DNA of 34,100 nt from a virus, in IMG/VR virus record IMGVR_UViG_3300025141_012569, positions 1 to 34,100 of that record. One strand, written 5' to 3'. The notes below the pieces were generated by a model. It saw only the letters and a program-made list of their open reading frames with translations, searched no databases and had not been told where the DNA came from. Of this stretch, positions 3,936 to 16,920 are shown one piece after another. Position 1 is the stretch's first letter, and every line of letters begins with the position of its first letter. The position numbers were made by a program, and so were the translations under genes.

Positions 3936-3990
3936 TCAGCCTTCCTAGGCTGAGCACTGAACAGCTTGTCACTGGTGGTGCAGCCTAGGA
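3936..3990 (+). promoter_or_regulatory. Hairpin and inverted repeats upstream of the initiator gene
   Basis: TCAGCC (3936-3941) pairs with GGCTGA (3948-3953). In addition TCCTAGGCT (3943-3951) is an inverted copy of AGCCTAGGA (3982-3990), so two alternative stems are possible. It lies just before the preferred start at 4002. It may be an operator, a translational control hairpin or part of a replication origin. Confidence 0.4.
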
Positions 3991-4001
3991 ATCAACCACC
4001 T

Positions 4002-4676
4002 ATGAAACTCTCTAAGATTGAAGTCCCATACGGCCAAGTACCAAATCAAGTAATGAATGATCCTAACCTATCATTCAAGGCCAAAGGTCTATTCGCATAC
4101 TTCCAATGCAAACCAAACAACTGGAACTTTGCAATAAGAAGAATAGTCAATGAAACAAAAGATGGAGAATCGGCAGTCAGAGCAGCGATAAATGAACTAG
4201 AAGAGGCAAAATATTTGGTGCGTGAAAAACGAGTGGATGGTCACATGAATTATAACTTAAAACTACCAGACCTATTAGTGGAAACCCCAACGTGCGAAAA
4301 CCTCCCGCAGGAGAAAACCTCACGCTATATAAAGAAAGATAATAATATAAAAAAAGATAATACTACTATTACTAACGTAATAGTAGAGGCAGAGCCTACA
4401 AATACGGATTTTGGTAATTCAGATATTAATTGGATTATGAAGACCTTTGAGGAGATTATGGGTTTTCCGTCTTCTGGGTCAAAGGATCGTTTTTTTGCTC
4501 GGCACGTGCTGAATAATTTTAACAAAGAACAGATACAGGGGATGCTTTTGTTCTGCGCCAACTATGAGTACTCACCCAATATTGGTTCTGTGCAAAAACT
4601 TTGGTATAAGCGTGGGGATATTGTTGCAGGGATTAAGAAAATAAAACAAACAGCAAGATCTGTTAGAAGTCTATGA
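4002..4676 (+). CDS. Replication initiator-like HTH protein
   Basis: 224 aa from the ATG at 4002. An upstream TTG (3966) would add 12 residues but lies within the hairpin region, so I prefer 4002. Residues 1-90 match the pattern of a phage helix-turn-helix domain (MKLSKIEVPYGQVPN..., then FKAKGLFAYF and SAVRAAINELEEAKYLVREKR), as in DnaD-like or replisome-organiser proteins. A polar linker with lysine and asparagine runs follows, then a C-terminal helical domain. It probably recognises the origin and loads the host helicase. The inverted repeats just upstream and the SSB-like neighbour support this. The next gene overlaps by ATGA. Confidence 0.7.
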   Translation: MKLSKIEVPYGQVPNQVMNDPNLSFKAKGLFAYFQCKPNNWNFAIRRIVNETKDGESAVRAAINELEEAKYLVREKRVDGHMNYNLKLPDLLVETPTCENLPQEKTSRYIKKDNNIKKDNTTITNVIVEAEPTNTDFGNSDINWIMKTFEEIMGFPSSGSKDRFFARHVLNNFNKEQIQGMLLFCANYEYSPNIGSVQKLWYKRGDIVAGIKKIKQTARSVRSL

Positions 4677-7305: not shown

Positions 7306-8091
7306 ATGCTTACAAAAGTAACAGCAGGGTTAGTAGGAGTTCTCGCACTTTTCTCATTTGTAGCTGTCATTGCTTCGGCGGAGATAGTTGATCCTGGGGA
7401 GCGAGCAGTTGTAATAAAATTTGGTAAAGTTGTAGATGTAAAATCAGAGGGGTTTTATTGGAGGGCTCCGTTTATTGAAGATTATAAGAAATTAGATGTA
7501 AAAACACAGAAGATAGAGGTTGCTGCTGATGCTGCATCAAGAGATCTGCAAAGTGTTTCTGCAACTATCGCACTTAACTACAACTTAAAACCCGATGAAG
7601 TTGGTCTTTTATGGGAAGAAATTGGAAAGGGTTACCAGGTACAAGTTATCGATCCAGCAATCCAGGAATCGGTAAAGTCTATAACAGCGAACTTTAATGC
7701 TGAAGAACTTGTAACAAAACGGGGGGAAGTTAGAGATGCAATTAAAGAGCTTTTGAAAGAAAAGTTAGGAGAAGAACATATTTTGGTGACTGAATTTGCA
7801 GTAACAAACTTCTCATTTTCTAAGTCATTTAATGCCGCGATTGAAGCAAAAGTAACAGCAGAACAGCGTGCACTTGAGGCTAAGAATAAACTTGAACAAG
7901 TGAAATTTGAAGCAGAACAGCAAATAGAACAGGCTAAGGCAGAGGCAGAATCTATCCGTATCCAAGCTCAGGCCGTTACTCAGCAAGGTGGGAAAGACTA
8001 CGTACAATTACAGGCCATTGCAAAATGGGATGGTAAATTACCGACACAATTTGTACCAGGGTCAGCAGTCCCATTTCTTACACTAGAATAA
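7306..8091 (+). CDS. SPFH/prohibitin-family membrane protein
   Basis: 261 aa. An N-terminal membrane anchor (about residues 4-25) is followed by the PHB domain (about 25-190; note VDPGERAVVIKFGKV and the basic/hydrophobic strands after it), then a coiled-coil helix rich in A, E and Q (about 185-230), and a C-terminal strand region (YVQLQAIAKWDGKLP). The layout matches prohibitin/HflC-type proteins that form large membrane cages and, in bacteria, regulate FtsH. In a phage it could restrain host proteolysis of a regulator, protect the membrane, or alter superinfection. The PHB domain is clear; the role is inferred. Confidence 0.85.
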   Translation: MLTKVTAGLVGVLALFSFVAVIASAEIVDPGERAVVIKFGKVVDVKSEGFYWRAPFIEDYKKLDVKTQKIEVAADAASRDLQSVSATIALNYNLKPDEVGLLWEEIGKGYQVQVIDPAIQESVKSITANFNAEELVTKRGEVRDAIKELLKEKLGEEHILVTEFAVTNFSFSKSFNAAIEAKVTAEQRALEAKNKLEQVKFEAEQQIEQAKAEAESIRIQAQAVTQQGGKDYVQLQAIAKWDGKLPTQFVPGSAVPFLTLE

Positions 8092-8218: not shown

Positions 8219-8344
8219 ATGAAAAGATTACTTTGTTTTTTGGGGTTTCATGATTGGGAGTGGATTGGAAATGTCTTTACAACTGAAAATAATGAAGTTG
8301 GATTGACGATGTGTTCTAGGTGTAGAAAAATAATTTTTTATTAG
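8219..8344 (+). CDS. DUF1660-like small phage protein (41 aa)
   Basis: Begins MKRLLCFLGFHDWEWIGN and ends with MCSRCRKIIFY. The pattern of C6, H11, W13 and a terminal CxxC is that of the small DUF1660-like phage proteins, likely zinc binding. Unknown function. It is the last AT-rich gene before the GC-rich islet. Confidence 0.6.
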   Translation: MKRLLCFLGFHDWEWIGNVFTTENNEVGLTMCSRCRKIIFY

Positions 8345-8349
8345 TTCTT

Positions 8350-8546
8350 ACACAAGAGAGGTGGCGGAATAGGTAGACGCAGACAAAAAACTAGGGAAGT
8401 GGTTACAACTAACTCTAGTGTAAGTATTAACCATGCAAGGTGACTATACGAGTAAAGCGACTAACTGTAATGGGAACGCCGTAATTCCCTCTGAGGTTAG
8501 AAGCCACTATACGGCAATCTCGGCAAATCCTTGCCCTCTCTTGTGT
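8350..8546 (+). ncRNA. tRNA-Leu-like structured RNA with large inserts
   Basis: The ends pair perfectly over 12 bp (8350-8361 with 8535-8546). Bases 8355-8381 read like the 5' half of a leucine tRNA: acceptor AGAGAGG, then TG, then a D-arm GCG-GAATAGGTAGA-CGC with the usual GG and a closing A. A T-stem-like pair GCAAGG (8435-8440) with CCTTGC (8529-8534) lies exactly against the 3' acceptor strand, as in a tRNA, and CAAAT precedes it as in a T-loop. However, no normal anticodon stem is visible, there is about 20 nt extra before the T-stem, and about 88 nt sit inside the T-loop with their own stems (CTAAC/GTTAG, GGGAA/TTCCC). No CCA is encoded. It could be an intron-bearing or decayed tRNA, or a tRNA mimic. 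The insert is too short for a normal group I intron. Confidence 0.5.
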
Positions 8547-8570
8547 GAGTGCTAGTCAACGGAGGCAGCC

Positions 8571-8732
8571 ATGAAACGTCCATGTTGGATTTGTCGAAGG
8601 CAGACAGAACAGACTCACGTCAGGACTAACCGAGTAACTGGGACTAAACGGTGGCATTGTCACCGATGCACTGGGACCAACATCGAGTCGGTGGAGACCA
8701 AGGAGGTCAAATGTACCCAGCAGTCAAGGTGA
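8571..8732 (+). CDS. Small zinc-ribbon protein (53 aa), islet gene 1
   Basis: Begins MKRPCWICRRQTEQTH and contains WHCHRC, giving a four-ligand zinc ribbon (C5, C8, C30, C33, with H29 and H31 nearby). A strong GGAGG (8561-8565) sits upstream of the start, unlike genes outside this islet. Basic and probably nucleic-acid or protein binding. It overlaps islet gene 2. Confidence 0.6.
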   Translation: MKRPCWICRRQTEQTHVRTNRVTGTKRWHCHRCTGTNIESVETKEVKCTQQSR

Positions 8733-8845
8733 TCAACTACAACATCTTCTTCAAACGGATCGTCTTCTTCGGTCAAGCAGTGTACTACAGTCCACTGACT
8801 GGGGATGTCGTTAGCTTCAAGATCAGGATGAGGATCAGAGCATGA
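8711..8845 (+). CDS. Small basic protein (44 aa), islet gene 2
   Basis: I chose the ATG at 8711 because AGGAGG at 8701-8706 gives it an ideal ribosome binding site; the frame stays open further upstream but without one. The product is beta-like, aromatic and ends with arginines (MYPAVKVINYNIFF...MRIRA). It overlaps gene 1 by 22 bases and gene 3 by ATGA. Unknown function. Confidence 0.5.
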   Translation: MYPAVKVINYNIFFKRIVFFGQAVYYSPLTGDVVSFKIRMRIRA

Positions 8846-9042
8846 GAAAGAGTCTTGCAAGGACAGTTATTCTCGACTTCATCAAAAGTCCGTGGAAGTA
8901 TAACAACGGCAAGATGGGGCTCATGTACTGGGCAAAGCGGATTCTTGGCCATGATGGCTATACGGATCTCATCACAGCTCACAACGTTCGTCGTCGGAAC
9001 AACGACCCGAACCTTAGCGCAGGAGAAAAACTCTGTGTGTAA
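8842..9042 (+). CDS. Small basic protein (66 aa), islet gene 3
   Basis: Begins MRKSLARTVILDFIKSPWKY; basic, with an N-terminal amphipathic helix and a middle segment MGLMYWAKRILGHDGYTD. It is coupled to gene 2 by ATGA and overlaps gene 4. C- and G-ending codons are more common than in flanking genes. No family recognised. Confidence 0.5.
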   Translation: MRKSLARTVILDFIKSPWKYNNGKMGLMYWAKRILGHDGYTDLITAHNVRRRNNDPNLSAGEKLCV

Positions 9043-9211
9043 ACGTAAAACCTGTGATGGCAGGTACTATCTGATTCGAGAGGAGCGGAACAGTCAGGTG
9101 ATCATCTATACGCTGAAGAAGCTCTACAGGTGTGACAAGTGTAACCACTCGTACACCGAGAGCAGCTTCGGCCAACGCGGTCCGAGGAGACGGCCAAGGG
9201 GATATGGATGA
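9035..9211 (+). CDS. Small zinc-ribbon protein (58 aa), islet gene 4
   Basis: I place the start at GTG 9035, nine bases after AGGAG (9021-9025). The product has C2 and C6 (CKRKTC), then YRCDKC (about 37-42), a four-cysteine ribbon, and a basic Gly/Arg/Pro tail. It probably binds nucleic acid. It overlaps genes 3 and 5. Confidence 0.5.
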   Translation: MCKRKTCDGRYYLIREERNSQVIIYTLKKLYRCDKCNHSYTESSFGQRGPRRRPRGYG

Positions 9212-9369
9212 AAACGAAAGCAAAAGTGGCCAAAAGGTCATTCTACTGCCCTAAGTGCAAGAAGACCCAAGTCTTCAAACACAAAGGCCGCCATGGATGG
9301 GCGGGTAGCAAGGTTTATGTCTGCTCTCATGGAGGTTGCAGTCAGGAATTGGAGGTGGCTAATGGATGA
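9208..9369 (+). CDS. Small zinc-ribbon protein (53 aa), islet gene 5
   Basis: Begins MKTKAKVAKRSFYCPKCKKT; C14 and C17 pair with C39 and C44 (YVCSHGGC) to make a zinc ribbon. The N-terminus is strongly basic. Coupled to gene 4 by ATGA. Unknown function. Confidence 0.55.
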   Translation: MKTKAKVAKRSFYCPKCKKTQVFKHKGRHGWAGSKVYVCSHGGCSQELEVANG

Positions 9370-9460
9370 AGTCACCAGGGAGTCCTTCCTGTTTATTGCA
9401 TTCATCTTCCTGTACTTTGCTCTTTGTTACCTTGGCAGAGGTGGAAGGGAACCTCCGTAA
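9362..9460 (+). CDS. Tiny single-TM peptide (32 aa), islet gene 6
   Basis: MDEVTRESFLFIAFIFLYFALC then a Gly/Arg-rich end. One membrane helix (about residues 8-24). A strong GGAGG (9351-9355) precedes the start by six bases. It closes the islet operon before a hairpin. Confidence 0.5.
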   Translation: MDEVTRESFLFIAFIFLYFALCYLGRGGREPP

Positions 9461-9472
9461 TATTACACGGTC

Positions 9473-9496
9473 AGGGGCGTACCGTTAAACGCCCCT
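9473..9496 (+). terminator. GC-rich hairpin closing the islet
   Basis: AGGGGCGT (9473-9480) pairs with ACGCCCCT (9489-9496), an 8-bp stem with an 8-base loop. There is no T run, so termination is uncertain. The hairpin sits at the point where base composition returns to AT-rich. Confidence 0.4.
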
Positions 9497-9522
9497 CCAG
9501 TTAACTTCAATGCTTGTAAGTT

Positions 9523-9807
9523 ATGACAAAAAGAAAGAAAAAAAGGGTAAAGTGTAGATCTTGTAATAGAACTGTTGGTCCTAAAGGGTTTGATGGTTCA
9601 TGTGGTCATTGTTTTCTTAATGACTTTGGGGATGTGGAAAGGGAGATATATTTAACAGAGAATAAAATAGAAAGGTTGTTAAGGCAAATAGAAAGGGCAG
9701 AAGTGTGGGATAAAAATTATCTATATATTGTTGCTGATAAAGGGGTAGGAAAACTCATAGAGTTAAGAAAAAGGAAGGAGAAAAAAGATAAGGAAAGTTA
9801 TTCATAG
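9523..9807 (+). CDS. Zinc-ribbon plus helix protein (94 aa)
   Basis: A lysine-rich start, then a four-cysteine ribbon (C11, C14, C27, C30), then a long charged helical region to the end. AT-rich again, without a Shine-Dalgarno. It could bind DNA or RNA. No family recognised. Confidence 0.6.
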   Translation: MTKRKKKRVKCRSCNRTVGPKGFDGSCGHCFLNDFGDVEREIYLTENKIERLLRQIERAEVWDKNYLYIVADKGVGKLIELRKRKEKKDKESYS

Positions 9808-10183: not shown

Positions 10184-10579
10184 ATGAAATTAAAACAATA
10201 TTCTGAGAGGACAAAAGAAGAGAAAGAAGAGATGTGGGACGAGATAGCAAAACAATTAGCAAAACCAAAAAGCGACAGACCCCAACAGAAGGAAATGTAT
10301 AACGCATACGGTATTCCAGAAGCTACTTACTATTGGAGAACAGGAAAGACAAGTTTTAAACAGAAAATAGTAGATAATTGCCTTAACGAAGCTAAAACTT
10401 GGATGCCTGAATTAGTAGAAGTACTTAGAGATAAGGCATTAATAGATAGAAGCGAAAAGAGTATTGAAATGGCCTTTAAGTATATAGCTAATGTAGCAGA
10501 GAAGATTGACCATACTACTAAAGGTGAAAAGATAAGTGGATTCAACTATGTCAGTCCAGAAAAGAAGGAAGATGTATGA
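10184..10579 (+). CDS. Terminase small subunit-like protein
   Basis: 131 aa. An HTH-like stretch lies at about 35-60 (KEMYNAYGIPEATYYWRTG), then helices suited to ring oligomerisation. Position is the best evidence: it lies just upstream of TerL (with an HNH gene between) and portal. TerS binds the packaging site and loads DNA to TerL. The sequence is not diagnostic alone. Confidence 0.6.
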   Translation: MKLKQYSERTKEEKEEMWDEIAKQLAKPKSDRPQQKEMYNAYGIPEATYYWRTGKTSFKQKIVDNCLNEAKTWMPELVEVLRDKALIDRSEKSIEMAFKYIANVAEKIDHTTKGEKISGFNYVSPEKKEDV

Positions 10580-11025
10580 TAAGGAATTGCAAATTGTGTC
10601 AAAAAGAGTTTAAGACGTATCCATCAAAAGTAAAGGTTGGTAGAGGTAAGTACTGTAGTAGGGATTGTTCAATGAAGGTGACGAATAAGATTCTGGAAGA
10701 GAATGGTAAAAATACAAGGTTTATTAAAGGGCAAGAAGCATACAATAAAAAAGGGTTTACCCATGTGCAGCCTAGAAAAGGTGGAAAGAAGTACACATTG
10801 ATTTACATGCCAGAGCATCCCTTTTCTACTAAGAAGGGGTATGTAAGAGAGCATCGGTTAGTGATGGAGCAGCATCTAGGCAGGTATTTAGATGACAACG
10901 AAGTAGTGCACCATATAAATGGTGAAACACAAGATAATCGAGTAGATAATTTAGAGGTAATGTCATGGGCTGACCATAGACGAGAACATTTGAAAGACAA
11001 CGTACATAAACGTTGGTATAACTAG
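10576..11025 (+). CDS. HNH homing-type endonuclease
   Basis: 149 aa. An N-terminal zinc finger (C5/C8 and C27/C31) precedes an HNH_3-like nuclease core: REHRLVMEQHLG (about 91-102), the catalytic EVVHHINGETQDNRVDNLEV (H112-H113, N121/N125) and H134/H138. It lies between TerS and TerL, a classic place for free-standing homing nucleases, and overlaps TerS by ATGA. It may home into terminase genes or help packaging cleavage. Confidence 0.85.
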   Translation: MIRNCKLCQKEFKTYPSKVKVGRGKYCSRDCSMKVTNKILEENGKNTRFIKGQEAYNKKGFTHVQPRKGGKKYTLIYMPEHPFSTKKGYVREHRLVMEQHLGRYLDDNEVVHHINGETQDNRVDNLEVMSWADHRREHLKDNVHKRWYN

Positions 11026-11044: not shown

Positions 11045-12435
11045 ATGTCACTTACTCCTACTATCAAACCCACTCCAAAACAACATGTTGCTTGGGACAA
11101 ATTGAGAGATAGTGTGGCGAAGTACATAGTTTTTGGTGGGGGGGCTTAGCTGGCGGTGGGAAGAGTTGGATTGGATGTGAATGGCTCCTTACAAATTGTT
11201 ACTTTTATCCTGGATCAAAATGGTTTATAGCTCGACGTGAGCTAAAGCGTTTAATGACCAGCAGTTATGTTACCTGGAATAAAGTGTGCAGACATCATGG
11301 TATTCCTAAAGAAGATTGGAGATTAAATGGTCAATACAACTTTATTGAGTTTTCTAACGGTTCTAGAGTAGACCTAATTGACCTAGCGTACCAACCAAAA
11401 GACCCATTATATGAGCGTTTAGGAAGTCTAGAGTACACAGGAGGATGGATTGAAGAAGCCTCTGAAGTTGATTTCCTTGCATTTGATGTTCTTAAATCTC
11501 GTATTGGTCGTCATAAGAATAAAGAGTTTAAACTTCTCCCGAAGATATTCCTGACCTGTAACCCTTCTAAGGGGTGGTTATACCGAGAGGTTTATAAACC
11601 CTATAGAGAAAAAAGATTGGCTGAGGGTTGGCATTTTATTCAGAGTCTTTATACAGATAATCCATACACTGCTAAGGAATATGGTGAATCACTCTCTGAG
11701 ATTAAAGACAGTGCAACAAAACAAAGGCTCATGCTCGGTAACTGGGAATATGATGATGATCCAGCAAAGATTGTAGAGTATGAAGCAATCCAAGACATGT
11801 TTACAAACCATATTGACCCAGGGCAAAAGTATCTAATAGTTGATGTAGCTAGATTTGGTAAAGATAAAACAGTGTTTACACTATGGGATGGGATGGAGTG
11901 CTACAAGATAAAAACTTTAGATAAAAGTTCTATAGAGCAAGTAGTAGAAGAAATAAAAGAGTTAGCACTCTACAATAGAATCCCATTTAGTCAGATACTG
12001 GTGGATGAAGATGGAGTAGGTGGTGGAGTTGTAGATCGTTTACAAGGTATTAAAGGGTTCGTAGCTAATAGAAGTGCAATCCAAACACAATATGATAATC
12101 CTAAAACAGGATACAAACCGAATTATCAGAACCTTAAAAGTCAATGTGCATTTAAACTGGCTGATGCTATCAACAACCATCAAATTGCGGTTACGATCAA
12201 AGATGAGACGATCAAAGAGTTGCTTGTCCAAGAGTTAGAGCAGCTTAAGAGAAAGAACCCAGACAAAGATGGGAAATTGGCTCTTATAGGGAAAGATTTA
12301 ATGAAAGATTCACTTGGAAGGTCACCAGATATAGCAGATTGTTTTATTATGAGAATGTACTTTGAATTAAAACCCGTTAATAAATTTAGACAATCATTTA
12401 TTCCACAACATAAAGGCGGATATTTACGAAGATAA
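11045..12435 (+). CDS. terL: Terminase large subunit (frameshifted at Walker A)
   Basis: Packaging ATPase-nuclease. From ATG 11045 the first frame runs through VAKYIVFGGGA and hits TAG at 11147-11149. The rest continues in the -1 frame as GLAGGGKSWIG to 12435. The break lies at seven Gs (11138-11144) inside the Walker A loop. Adding one G or removing two restores one product of about 462-463 aa, normal for TerL. Downstream are an acidic pair after hydrophobic residues (GGWIEEAS), a coupling motif (FLTCNPSKGW) and three nuclease aspartates (LIVDVARFGKDKT, ILVDEDGVGGG, DIADCF). A sequence error in the homopolymer is most likely. A slip on GGGGGGG would also give exactly this frame change. Confidence 0.9.
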
Positions 12436-12437
12436 CT

Positions 12438-14321
12438 ATGGATTTATTTATTGAACCCCTTAGGGATAAAAAAGGGAAATTAGTTGAGAAGAGTTATAGT
12501 CAATATAATCCTTCAGAAGCTATCAAAGAACGCATTGCAGAAGTAATGCGTGATTATGGTATTGCAGATAACGTAAGAAATAACACTTATGAGGAATTTG
12601 ATAACTTGGATTTGATTGATTATGTTAATGAATGCCAAGTTAGATTTAATGAAAATACTCCTAGTGGAGAGGATGATCCCTCTGATAGTTGGAAGTCAAA
12701 TATTGTAAAGCCCTTTACTAGAAATAAAGTAAGGAATATTGTCGCTCAAGTAACACAGTCTATTCTTTTCCCAAGTATTATTGCTCAAAATAGGGATAAT
12801 GAAGAAGACCGTGAAATGGCAGAAGTAATGAAAGATGTTATCGAATATGTACTTGAACAAGATAATTACTCAGAGAAATTTATTGATATTGCCACAAACA
12901 TGGCGGTATATCCTGGAGAGTGTATTTATCAAGGATTTTCCCAAGTTAAGAGAAAAGTTAAAGAAATACTAGATAATGGGGATTATACGATTAAAGAGGT
13001 GGTAGACGAGATTTATAGTGGGTTTAAACTTATGCATGTCCCTATTGAAGATTTTTATATTGCAAACATTTACGAATCTGATCTGCAAAAGCAGCCTTTT
13101 ATTGTTTATAGTCGTATCATTGATTATTCAGAGGCAGAGGTTAAGTACGGGCATCTTGAAGACTTTAAGTATGTGGTTCCTGGAGTAAGAGTGGGCTATG
13201 CAGACAAAGAGGACACTTTCTTTGATCGTTACGATGATAATCTTCAAAATAGACTTGTAACAGAGGATGTTTATTACAATAGAAGCGCTGATCTTGAGCT
13301 TGTATTGGTAGGTGGTGTTCTTGTTCATGGCGACCCAGAACGACCAATGCAAAGAAAAGATAAGATGTACCCTTTTGCTTTTAATGGGTACGAACGTATT
13401 AGTAGTAGATTCTTCTACTTTAAGCCTCTCGTGCAGAATCTCAAAGGTATTCAGGACGAACTAGACATTATGCATCGAATGATTATTGATGGTACGTATC
13501 TCTCCTTAATGCCACCTTTAGCTGTTTATGGTGAAGAAAATATTGATAATTCAGTGTTTATCCCTGGTTCTGTCCATCCATTTGGTCCAGATACTCAAGT
13601 TAGCCCTATTCAACAAGGGACAAATTTAAATGCTGGTCTTTCAGTATTATCTCAATTAGAGAGTGAAGGTACTGAGGTCTCGGCTAGTGAGTTAGCTGGT
13701 GGAGCTCCGTTGCCAGGAGATAGAACAAAGTTTGAAATTGCAAGGATTGAACAGAATGCAGCTATTAAGCTTGGATTATTTGGAAAGAGGATTAGTTTTC
13801 TTATTAGAGATATTGGAAGATTACTTGTTGGGTCTGTCACTCAACATATGCCTTTCACTGAAGTGATGGAAGTTTCTGGGGACGATGCTCGGGTGAGTTT
13901 TGCGAGTATTATGATGAAAGATCGCAATGTGAAAGGTGAGACGATGGACAGAAGAATTGAGTTTACAAATCAATTTCCTGAAAGTGAAGAAGAACTACAA
14001 GCTGCACAGCTTGAATTGTTAAATAGATCAACTCAAAATAAAGGTGGAAAGCTTGTACAAACCCAGACAATATCGCAAGTGAATCCAGATGCATTTAAGA
14101 GAATGAAATACTTAGTAAAAGTGGAACCAAACTTCACAAGTAGGCAGATAGAGCTAGAGAAGCGAGTAGCATTCTACGATAGAACAATCCAAAATCCATT
14201 CATTAATCAGGAAGAAAACACGAGAGCATTTATCAAACACTTCCTCCCAGGTGAAGAAGAAAAACTGTTAAAGAAACAAAAGAATATAGCTGAAGAATTG
14301 CAAAATGCACCAGCAGTATGA
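12438..14321 (+). CDS. Portal protein
   Basis: 627 aa directly after TerL, with the mixed alpha/beta texture and length of podovirus-type portals. The N-terminal part has the clip/wing pattern (DSWKSNIVKPFTRNKV, about 83-98), and the C-terminal third is helical with a charged end (EEEKLLKKQKN). It forms the 12-mer vertex ring through which DNA is pumped. The assignment rests on length, order and general texture. Confidence 0.8.
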   Translation: MDLFIEPLRDKKGKLVEKSYSQYNPSEAIKERIAEVMRDYGIADNVRNNTYEEFDNLDLIDYVNECQVRFNENTPSGEDDPSDSWKSNIVKPFTRNKVRNIVAQVTQSILFPSIIAQNRDNEEDREMAEVMKDVIEYVLEQDNYSEKFIDIATNMAVYPGECIYQGFSQVKRKVKEILDNGDYTIKEVVDEIYSGFKLMHVPIEDFYIANIYESDLQKQPFIVYSRIIDYSEAEVKYGHLEDFKYVVPGVRVGYADKEDTFFDRYDDNLQNRLVTEDVYYNRSADLELVLVGGVLVHGDPERPMQRKDKMYPFAFNGYERISSRFFYFKPLVQNLKGIQDELDIMHRMIIDGTYLSLMPPLAVYGEENIDNSVFIPGSVHPFGPDTQVSPIQQGTNLNAGLSVLSQLESEGTEVSASELAGGAPLPGDRTKFEIARIEQNAAIKLGLFGKRISFLIRDIGRLLVGSVTQHMPFTEVMEVSGDDARVSFASIMMKDRNVKGETMDRRIEFTNQFPESEEELQAAQLELLNRSTQNKGGKLVQTQTISQVNPDAFKRMKYLVKVEPNFTSRQIELEKRVAFYDRTIQNPFINQEENTRAFIKHFLPGEEEKLLKKQKNIAEELQNAPAV

Positions 14322-15987: not shown

Positions 15988-16920
15988 ATGGCTTTAACCT
16001 CAGGATTGAGTTCAAATGCCGTGAAAACCGCTCTTGACGCTGTGTTTTATGGGGAATACGAGTACCCAGTTGCTCCTGGAGTAGCTACAGCTCTCGACCC
16101 TTACGTTTTCATGCAGGACTCTGCTGACCGCGCTGCTATTATCACTGAGCAGTTTGAAGGTCCAGGTTACTTCGAGGAACGTGCTGAGCAACAAAATGTT
16201 GCAGAAAAGACACCTCGAATTGGAAATCAAATCACTTACAACGTTGCTAGTTATGCACAATCTGTGCCTATCTCAAAGAGATTCTTTGATGATGATCAAC
16301 ATTCTGTAGTAACTCGTCTTGTTGAAAGAATGGGACGAAACGCTCAACTTTCACGTGATAAAAACGCTTTCGAAGTGCTTAACAATGGTTTCTCTACAAC
16401 TCTTACTAATGATGGTGCTGCTTTGTTTTCAAACTCACACACCACTCTTAGTGGAGAAACTGTAGATAACCTTGAAACTGCTGCCCTTAGCGACACTTCA
16501 CTTGAAACACTTGTTGTTTCTCTTATGGAGCAACACACACAAGACGGTACTCTTGGTGGTTACGTTCCACACTGTCTAGTTGTTCCACCAGCTCTCTTTA
16601 AAGAAGCTACAATCATTGCTAAGTCAGAACTCCGATCAGCTTCAGCTGACAATGATCTTAACTACTTCTCACAAGTTTATCCAGGAATGCAAGTGAAACA
16701 ATCTCCTTTCCTTGGTGCTAACAATGGTGGTAGTGACACTGCTTGGTTCTTGATGAGCCGAAAACACAGCCTATACCGCTGGGTTCGACAAGAAGTTGTA
16801 ACTGACATCGTTGATTACAAATATCAAGCTAACAACAACTACATCTATAAGGCTGAATACCGTGAAATCGTAGGGCCTATCTCATACGAAGGTCTTGTGG
16901 CTTCTAACGGAACTACCTAA
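15988..16920 (+). CDS. Major capsid protein (Mu gpT-like)
   Basis: 310 aa. Residues 124-158 (RDKNAFEVLNNGFS...DGAALFSNSH) and 165-206 (SDTSLETLVVSLM...CLVVPPALFKEA) match the characteristic Mu gpT major head subunit pattern, an HK97-fold capsid. The C-terminal part (KHSLYRWVRQEVVTDIVDY) is the axial domain. There is no long N-terminal delta domain, which agrees with a separate scaffold gene. Confidence 0.9.
   Translation: MALTSGLSSNAVKTALDAVFYGEYEYPVAPGVATALDPYVFMQDSADRAAIITEQFEGPGYFEERAEQQNVAEKTPRIGNQITYNVASYAQSVPISKRFFDDDQHSVVTRLVERMGRNAQLSRDKNAFEVLNNGFSTTLTNDGAALFSNSHTTLSGETVDNLETAALSDTSLETLVVSLMEQHTQDGTLGGYVPHCLVVPPALFKEATIIAKSELRSASADNDLNYFSQVYPGMQVKQSPFLGANNGGSDTAWFLMSRKHSLYRWVRQEVVTDIVDYKYQANNNYIYKAEYREIVGPISYEGLVASNGTT

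What the first reader, a model, noticed from the sequence alone, without database searches (positions are those of the whole stretch)
8350..9496. GC-rich, SD-bearing islet in an SD-less phage
Six tiny overlapping genes, three of them four-cysteine zinc ribbons and one a TM peptide, sit in DNA that is visibly richer in G and C: hand counts give 28/60 (9061-9120) and 35/60 (9121-9180), versus 21/60 (8221-8280) and 22/60 (9541-9600) in the flanks. Four of the six have strong GGAGG or AGGAG sites at ideal spacing, whereas genes outside lack them. A structured tRNA-like RNA opens the block and a GC-rich hairpin closes it. Inference: a recently acquired cassette from a donor with different translation signals, or an assembly join.
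Basis: partly seen in the sequence, partly recalled or inferred. Interest (0 to 1): 0.72.

Follow-up and report, generated by a model that had tools for sequence, protein, structure and literature searches.

The report
Phage tRNA mimic beside foreign genes
The block is real: it starts with a tRNA look-alike RNA that cannot read codons, part of a large RNA family in bacterial viruses that RNA databases do not list, followed by six tiny genes whose composition and start signals mark them as foreign to this virus.

Summary
The six overlapping genes at 8571-9460 have GC 0.496 against 0.382 ± 0.023 elsewhere, GC3 0.53-0.70, and all carry Shine-Dalgarno sites in an otherwise SD-less phage. Their codon usage is 7 SD from the phage's own. 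They have no detectable relatives, and 80 terminase relatives lack the block. An acquired cassette fits best; an assembly join is not excluded.

The larger finding is the RNA at 8348-8548. It belongs to a widespread phage RNA family, absent from Rfam 15, with a 7-bp acceptor stem, a tRNA-Leu-like D-arm and a T-arm. A pseudoknot replaces the anticodon and variable arms. The helices covary strongly. Cultured carriers include SPP1, SPbeta-like phages, phi3T and Nitunavirus Grass. The window holds a second architecture, whose T-loop is opened by an extra helical domain. A covariance model that never saw the window finds it at 111 bits, E 3.7e-28.

A trans-acting, non-decoding tRNA decoy is my best guess at function, but it is untested.

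The parts
8348..8548 (+). Whole tRNA-like RNA with its 14-bp closing helix (8348-8361 with 8535-8548)
   Evidence: Direct sequence; fold z = -3.4; covariance model R1, not trained on the window, hits 8355-8541 at 111 bits, E 3.7e-28
8355..8361 (+). 7-bp acceptor-like stem, 5' strand; 3' strand at 8535-8541
   Evidence: Covaries as exactly 7 bp in 271 relatives and in alignment A1
8364..8380 (+). D-arm: stem GCG/CGC, loop GAATAGGTAGA; nearly invariant across the family
   Evidence: compensatory changes in the D-stem; 1 nt from true tRNA-Leu D-arms
8390..8432 (+). H-type pseudoknot in place of the anticodon and variable arms: S1 8390-8394/8415-8419, S2 8401-8405/8428-8432
   Evidence: Sequence; the same crossing-stem arrangement is enriched in relatives, p about 1e-57 and 1e-19 against shuffles
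8435..8534 (+). T-arm: 6-bp stem 8435-8440/8529-8534; A8433-U8434 link before it
8443..8523 (+). Type-B domain inserted in the T-loop between GGUG and CAAAUCC: ACUAUA, stem CGAG/CUCG (8449-8452/8519-8522), then a variable hairpin region
   Evidence: Found without being specified (shown); 108 contigs; CUCG partner conserved though not part of the search
8571..8732 (+). Small gene 1, 53 aa, two CxxC pairs, SD GGAGG
8711..8845 (+). Small gene 2, 44 aa, SD AAGGAGG
8842..9042 (+). Small gene 3, 66 aa, weaker SD AGGA
   Evidence: no relatives
9035..9211 (+). Small gene 4, 58 aa, GTG start, four-Cys, SD AGGAG
9208..9369 (+). Small gene 5, 53 aa, four-Cys ribbon; weak matches to transposase-type zinc ribbons
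   Evidence: phrog_28897 E 1.1e-5; Pfam below cut-off
9362..9460 (+). Small gene 6, 32 aa, hydrophobic segment, SD GGAGG
9473..9496 (+). GC-rich hairpin AGGGGCG/CGCCCCT closing the block, without a U-tail
   Evidence: Sequence

Best explanation
Two things lie side by side. First, 8348-8548 encodes a tRNA-like RNA (TLR) of a widespread phage family that appears to be undescribed. It has the tRNA elbow (D-arm and T-arm, 7-bp acceptor, 6-bp T-stem), but a hypervariable pseudoknot replaces the anticodon and variable arms, and in this 'type B' a further helical domain opens the T-loop. It cannot decode. The most likely mechanism is inferred: it is cut from the phage transcript by tRNA-processing enzymes and acts in trans as a decoy or inhibitor of a host factor that grips the tRNA elbow, such as a tRNA-targeting defence nuclease, a processing or modifying enzyme, or a translation factor, with the variable pseudoknot as the part under diversifying selection. 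Second, 8571-9460 is an operon of six tiny genes taken recently from a donor that uses Shine-Dalgarno signals and a GC-richer codon usage. Shown here: the structure, the family, the type-B variant and the foreign composition. Inferred: transcription, processing, the decoy role and the acquisition event.
For: Family: more than 250 contigs carry the core and T-arm. Over 271 unique copies the acceptor pairs at 87-99.6% per position against 18-37% when slid by one; the acceptor strands and the 3' half of the T-stem were not specified in the search. Pseudoknot enrichment p about 1e-57 and 1e-19. Type B: 108 contigs, alignment 99% paired, 105 double-change cells against 27 shuffled. The independent model finds the window copy, E 3.7e-28. 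tRNA origin: D-arm 1 nt from tRNA-Leu. Co-directional with tRNAs (206 of 211 within 2 kb) and without an open frame in 239 of 285. Phage or prophage linkage. Foreign operon.
Against: No expression or processing data were available. The discriminator is A in only 60% of type A and U in the window, and no CCA is encoded, so aminoacylation is doubtful. The frequent position between a late activator and the terminase genes equally suits a cis-acting role. Type-B pairing in A1 was partly selected, because the extraction script required acceptor and T-stem pairing. An assembly join at the operon borders is not excluded.
Confidence: 0.5

Rival explanations
1. The RNA acts in cis: it is a tRNA-shaped processing or regulatory signal at the head of late or packaging operons, cut by RNase P or acting on RNA polymerase, with no function once released.
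For: Same-strand late-activator-like genes about 200-350 nt upstream in 72 of 285 loci, and HNH/TerS/TerL downstream in 99; the window copy precedes an HNH gene and TerL.
Against: Other copies lie in tRNA arrays, inside the SPP1 head operon or between SPbeta early genes; the conserved pseudoknot and the 20-nt D-arm exceed what a cleavage signal needs.
Confidence: 0.27
2. The six-gene block, with or without the RNA, is an assembly chimera and not part of this virus.
For: Extreme composition and SD contrast; no contig crossing either border was found; no relatives in phage or plasmid records.
Against: The RNA at the left edge is intact, of the type found also in SD-poor phages (13 of 60 loci), and placed as usual before the packaging genes; genes on both sides have relatives in phages with this kind of terminase.
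Confidence: 0.17
3. The RNA is a phage Y RNA (YrlA kind): a tRNA-like module that serves a Ro60 protein.
For: YrlA RNAs are known tRNA mimics; TROVE/Ro60 genes lie near the TLR in L295 and in L188/L228.
Against: Only 1 of 100 TLR-bearing virus records encodes TROVE; the window has none and does not match Rfam YrlA; carriers infect B. subtilis, a control genome in which the TROVE search did not ring.
Confidence: 0.04
4. It is an ordinary tRNA gene interrupted by an intron.
For: tRNA-Leu-like 5' half; removing 8443-8523 restores the type-A T-loop.
Against: Removing the D-arm/T-arm insert leaves no anticodon arm at all, in this or any other copy; ARAGORN and Rfam see neither a tRNA nor an intron here.
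Confidence: 0.02

Closest known systems
tRNA-Leu (class II tRNA)
   Same: D-arm 1 nt different from real tRNA-Leu, 7-bp acceptor, T-arm with U54, C56 and A58, R15-U48-like link
   Different: No anticodon arm or variable arm; 6-bp T-stem giving a 13-bp stack; pseudoknot instead; type B has an interrupted T-loop
YrlA bacterial Y RNA (Rfam RF02553)
   Same: tRNA-mimicking noncoding RNA, also reported from phages (own knowledge: Chen et al. 2014)
   Different: No Rfam match and no Ro60 linkage
tmRNA (Rfam RF00023)
   Same: tRNA-like domain plus pseudoknots; one phage carries a tmRNA right before its TLR
   Different: TLR is 80-200 nt with an intact D-stem and does not match RF00023
Plant-virus tRNA-like structures
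   Same: A viral RNA that imitates tRNA
   Different: Those sit at the 3' end of RNA genomes (own knowledge); this is encoded inside dsDNA phages

Membership tests
Canonical tRNA | 7-bp acceptor, D-arm, T-arm | tested here: met
   Covariation in 271 copies and in A1
Canonical tRNA | Anticodon arm | tested here: not met
   Replaced by a hypervariable pseudoknot; ARAGORN finds no tRNA
YrlA / Y RNA | Match to Rfam RF02553 | tested here: not met
   for the window; no match at E up to 10 for a type-A member
YrlA / Y RNA | Partner Ro60 (TROVE) gene nearby | tested here: not met
   1 of 100 carrier records; none in the window
tmRNA | Match to RF00023 | tested here: not met
phi29-type packaging RNA or any other Rfam 15 RNA | Match to the family model | tested here: not met
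   No family at gathering score in the window; only chance-level matches at E up to 5
The TLR family described here (type B) | Acceptor, D-arm, T-stem and the ACUAUACGAG/CUCG T-loop domain in one covariance model | tested here: met
   Window 8355-8541, 111 bits, model trained without it
The TLR family described here | Transcribed and processed as a separate RNA | not testable with these tools
   Needs RNA-seq or Northern blot
Mobile cassette of RNA plus six genes | The genes travel with the RNA elsewhere | tested here: not met
   No islet protein near any other fetched TLR, none in phages or plasmids

The most novel reading that the evidence does not exclude
A very widespread, undescribed class of phage RNA derived from tRNA-Leu, with the anticodon arm replaced by a hypervariable pseudoknot and, in a second lineage, a new domain built into the T-loop, works as a non-decoding tRNA mimic in host takeover or counter-defence. 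It would be present in textbook phages such as SPP1 and phi3T.
Probability: 0.4. Interest if true: 0.88.

Novelty: new variant of a known kind. Interest (0 to 1): 0.74.

Why it matters
An RNA conserved almost letter for letter in its D-arm across phages of many hosts, present in model phages studied for decades and absent from Rfam, would be a major overlooked phage component. Copies in SPP1 and in SPbeta-like phages of B. subtilis make its function directly testable in laboratory strains. The type-B T-loop is a new way to build on a tRNA elbow. The SD-bearing operon in an SD-less phage asks how such genes are translated after transfer.

Tried and rejected
DNA and protein searches of the islet against phages and plasmids found nothing. 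Gene 3 gave no relatives in viral contigs, and an exact islet 24-mer found no second contig. Rfam in the window gave only chance hits. Listeria rliG ends at the start of the TLR in L016 and does not model it, so it is not evidence of expression. The Ro60/Y RNA idea was followed after a TROVE gene turned up beside one TLR and was dropped. A Bacteroidota-type promoter motif search did not identify the host. The idea that TLRs are usually followed by odd GC blocks was tested: only a weak rise in GC variance on both sides, and only one other locus of 213 comes near this one. Literature searches, including the core sequence as text, found no description; the library lacks most subscription journals and holds no separate bioRxiv collection.

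Full report
Setting. The window is the whole of one linear IMG/VR virus record of 34100 bases. Its genes are those of a tailed phage: integrase (1385-2248), replication initiator (3966-4676), Band-7/SPFH protein (7306-8091), HNH nuclease (10576-11025), large terminase (11254-12435), portal (12438-14321) and capsid (15988-16920). The block in question lies between the SPFH gene and the packaging genes.

Observation. All quantitative claims hold or are understated. GC of 8556-9490 is 0.496 against 0.382 ± 0.023 in all other windows of that size (maximum 0.441). The likelihood-best GC segment is 8471-9500. GC3 of the six genes is 0.53-0.70 against 0.17-0.46 elsewhere, and all six have SD-like sites. 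Synonymous codon usage of the six genes is 7 SD from random gene blocks of the same phage. The flanks and the terminase relatives are SD-less (median 0).

Relatives. A terminase search gave 80 virus contigs: 79 at 45-59% identity and one 100% DNA-identical contig, L322, which begins at window 11441. None holds a TLR core or a convincing covariance-model hit (only noise at 15 bits or less), and none shows such a GC block. Several left-hand genes have relatives upstream of such terminases, so both flanks look like one phage. No contig crossing either border was found, so a chimera remains possible.

The RNA. The stretch GGTGGCGGAATAGGTAGACGCAGAC recurred exactly in ten virus contigs. Each is followed by a T-arm and a complementary acceptor strand, but by no anticodon arm. 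BLAST found copies in cultured phages, not annotated as RNA in the regions inspected: phi3T, SPbeta-like phages, SPP1, Nitunavirus Grass, Listeria, Enterococcus, Paenibacillus and Lactobacillus phages. A scan of 84,980 prokaryote genomes gave only 55 stretches, mostly Bacillota; half of the unique genome loci examined have a recognised recurrent neighbour family, most often late-activator or packaging genes. Model searches gave 11 of 201 genomes of one Paenibacillus-containing family and 1 of 198 of the order of L295. This patchiness fits prophage carriage.

Structure. In 271 unique type-A copies the acceptor is exactly 7 bp, with per-position pairing of 99.6, 98.9, 99.3, 98.9, 97.8, 96.7 and 86.7%, then a drop to 53%; sliding by one gives 18-37%. 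The T-stem is 6 bp, giving a 13-bp stack. The base after the acceptor is A in 162 of 271. The insert between the D-arm and the T-arm is hypervariable, but its 3' end pairs with an upstream segment (p about 1e-57 against shuffles) and a second stem crosses it (p about 1e-19): an H-type pseudoknot. SPP1 shows it clearly: CCUC/GAGG crossed with GUACGGG/CCCGUAC. In the window the stems are 8390-8394/8415-8419 and 8401-8405/8428-8432. True tRNA-Leu genes in the fetched loci differ from the 20-nt D-arm core by as little as one base, so the RNA probably derives from tRNA-Leu.

Type B. The window's T-loop reads GGUG-(81 nt)-CAAAUCC. A scan that fixed only the D-arm, the GGTG and CAAATCC, and left the insert free, found 15 contigs. 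Twelve, representing eleven distinct loci, have the opened T-loop, mostly as GGTGACTATACGAG or close variants. A scan for that motif gave 108 contigs. In the 83 loci that passed extraction the unspecified partner is CTCG in most. The alignment of 26 scores 99.0% paired and 105 double-change cells (shuffled 27 ± 5), and sliding removes the signal. Caution: the extraction script required acceptor and T-stem pairing, so that part of A1 is selected; the type-A counts are not. A covariance model built without the window finds it at 8355-8541, 111 bits, E 3.7e-28, and also finds type-A copies such as SPP1 at 56 bits. Matches of about 83 nt at about 30 bits in whole genomes are by their size presumably ordinary class II tRNAs.

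Context. 75 of 285 unique loci have tRNAs within 2 kb, 206 of 211 of them on the same strand, and 239 of 285 RNAs contain no open frame. Recurrent neighbours are late-activator-like families 200-350 nt upstream (72 loci) and HNH/TerS/TerL downstream (99 loci), all co-directional (the activator label is inferred from sequence and position and was not scanned against a library). The window copy sits in the same place. Others lie in tRNA arrays or within the SPP1 head operon, which argues against one fixed cis role.

Relation of the RNA to the six genes. None of the islet proteins is found near any other fetched TLR, and GC blocks of this size are not usual downstream of TLRs. TLRs are on average 6.5 GC points richer than their contigs, so the RNA's GC is no sign of foreign origin. 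The foreign segment is therefore best drawn at about 8550-9496, next to a native-looking RNA.

Function. Inference: an RNA that keeps the tRNA elbow and loses the anticodon can bind tRNA-handling factors but cannot decode. Phages are known to face tRNA-targeting defences (own knowledge; PMC13096335 reports Septu cleaving the tRNA-Tyr variable loop). A decoy or inhibitor role with a fast-changing pseudoknot is my first choice, at roughly 0.35; a cis-acting processing or late-operon signal is second. Ro60 partnership is unlikely: 1 of 100 carrier records has a TROVE gene.

Novelty. The family is not in Rfam 15, and the core sequence is not in the open literature held here. tRNA mimics are a known kind, so this is filed as a new variant; prior description in papers not held cannot be excluded.

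Noticed in passing
L017:2145-2495 (Enterococcus phage phiSHEF16, OL799260.1): A tmRNA gene (Rfam RF00023, 130 bits), absent from the record's annotation of this stretch, lies directly upstream of the TLR in a tRNA array.
   Followed up: partly
L012, about 2615-2660 (SPP1, between genes 9 and 11): Directly after the TLR lies a second, shorter tRNA-like element (ACGGAC...CGGGTTCAATTCCCG...GTCCGT) without an anticodon arm; similar ones follow the TLR in L021 and L265.
   Followed up: no
L295; L188 and L228; L191 record (L511): A few TLR loci lie near, or in the same record as, a TROVE/Ro60 gene; possibly a separate Ro60-linked subgroup.
   Followed up: partly
L403/L435 (IMGVR_UViG_2877079323_000003), L258, L069, L073, L007, L002: Several phages carry two to four TLR copies with different inserts.
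   Followed up: no
L016:2338-2536 and 2775-2824: Listeria sRNA rliG ends at about where the TLR begins, and an mcrA RNA follows it.
   Followed up: partly
window 7306-8091: The phage carries a Band-7/SPFH membrane protein gene (Pfam E 1.1e-36) just before the block; its role in this phage is unknown.
   Followed up: no
window 8348-8361 with 8535-8548: In the window the acceptor helix runs on to 14 bp, twice the 7 bp typical of the family.
   Followed up: no
L008:1843-1908 and L014:3863-3928: DUF3800-VIII RNA (Rfam RF03075) lies within about 1.5 kb of the TLR in two SPbeta-like phages.
   Followed up: no
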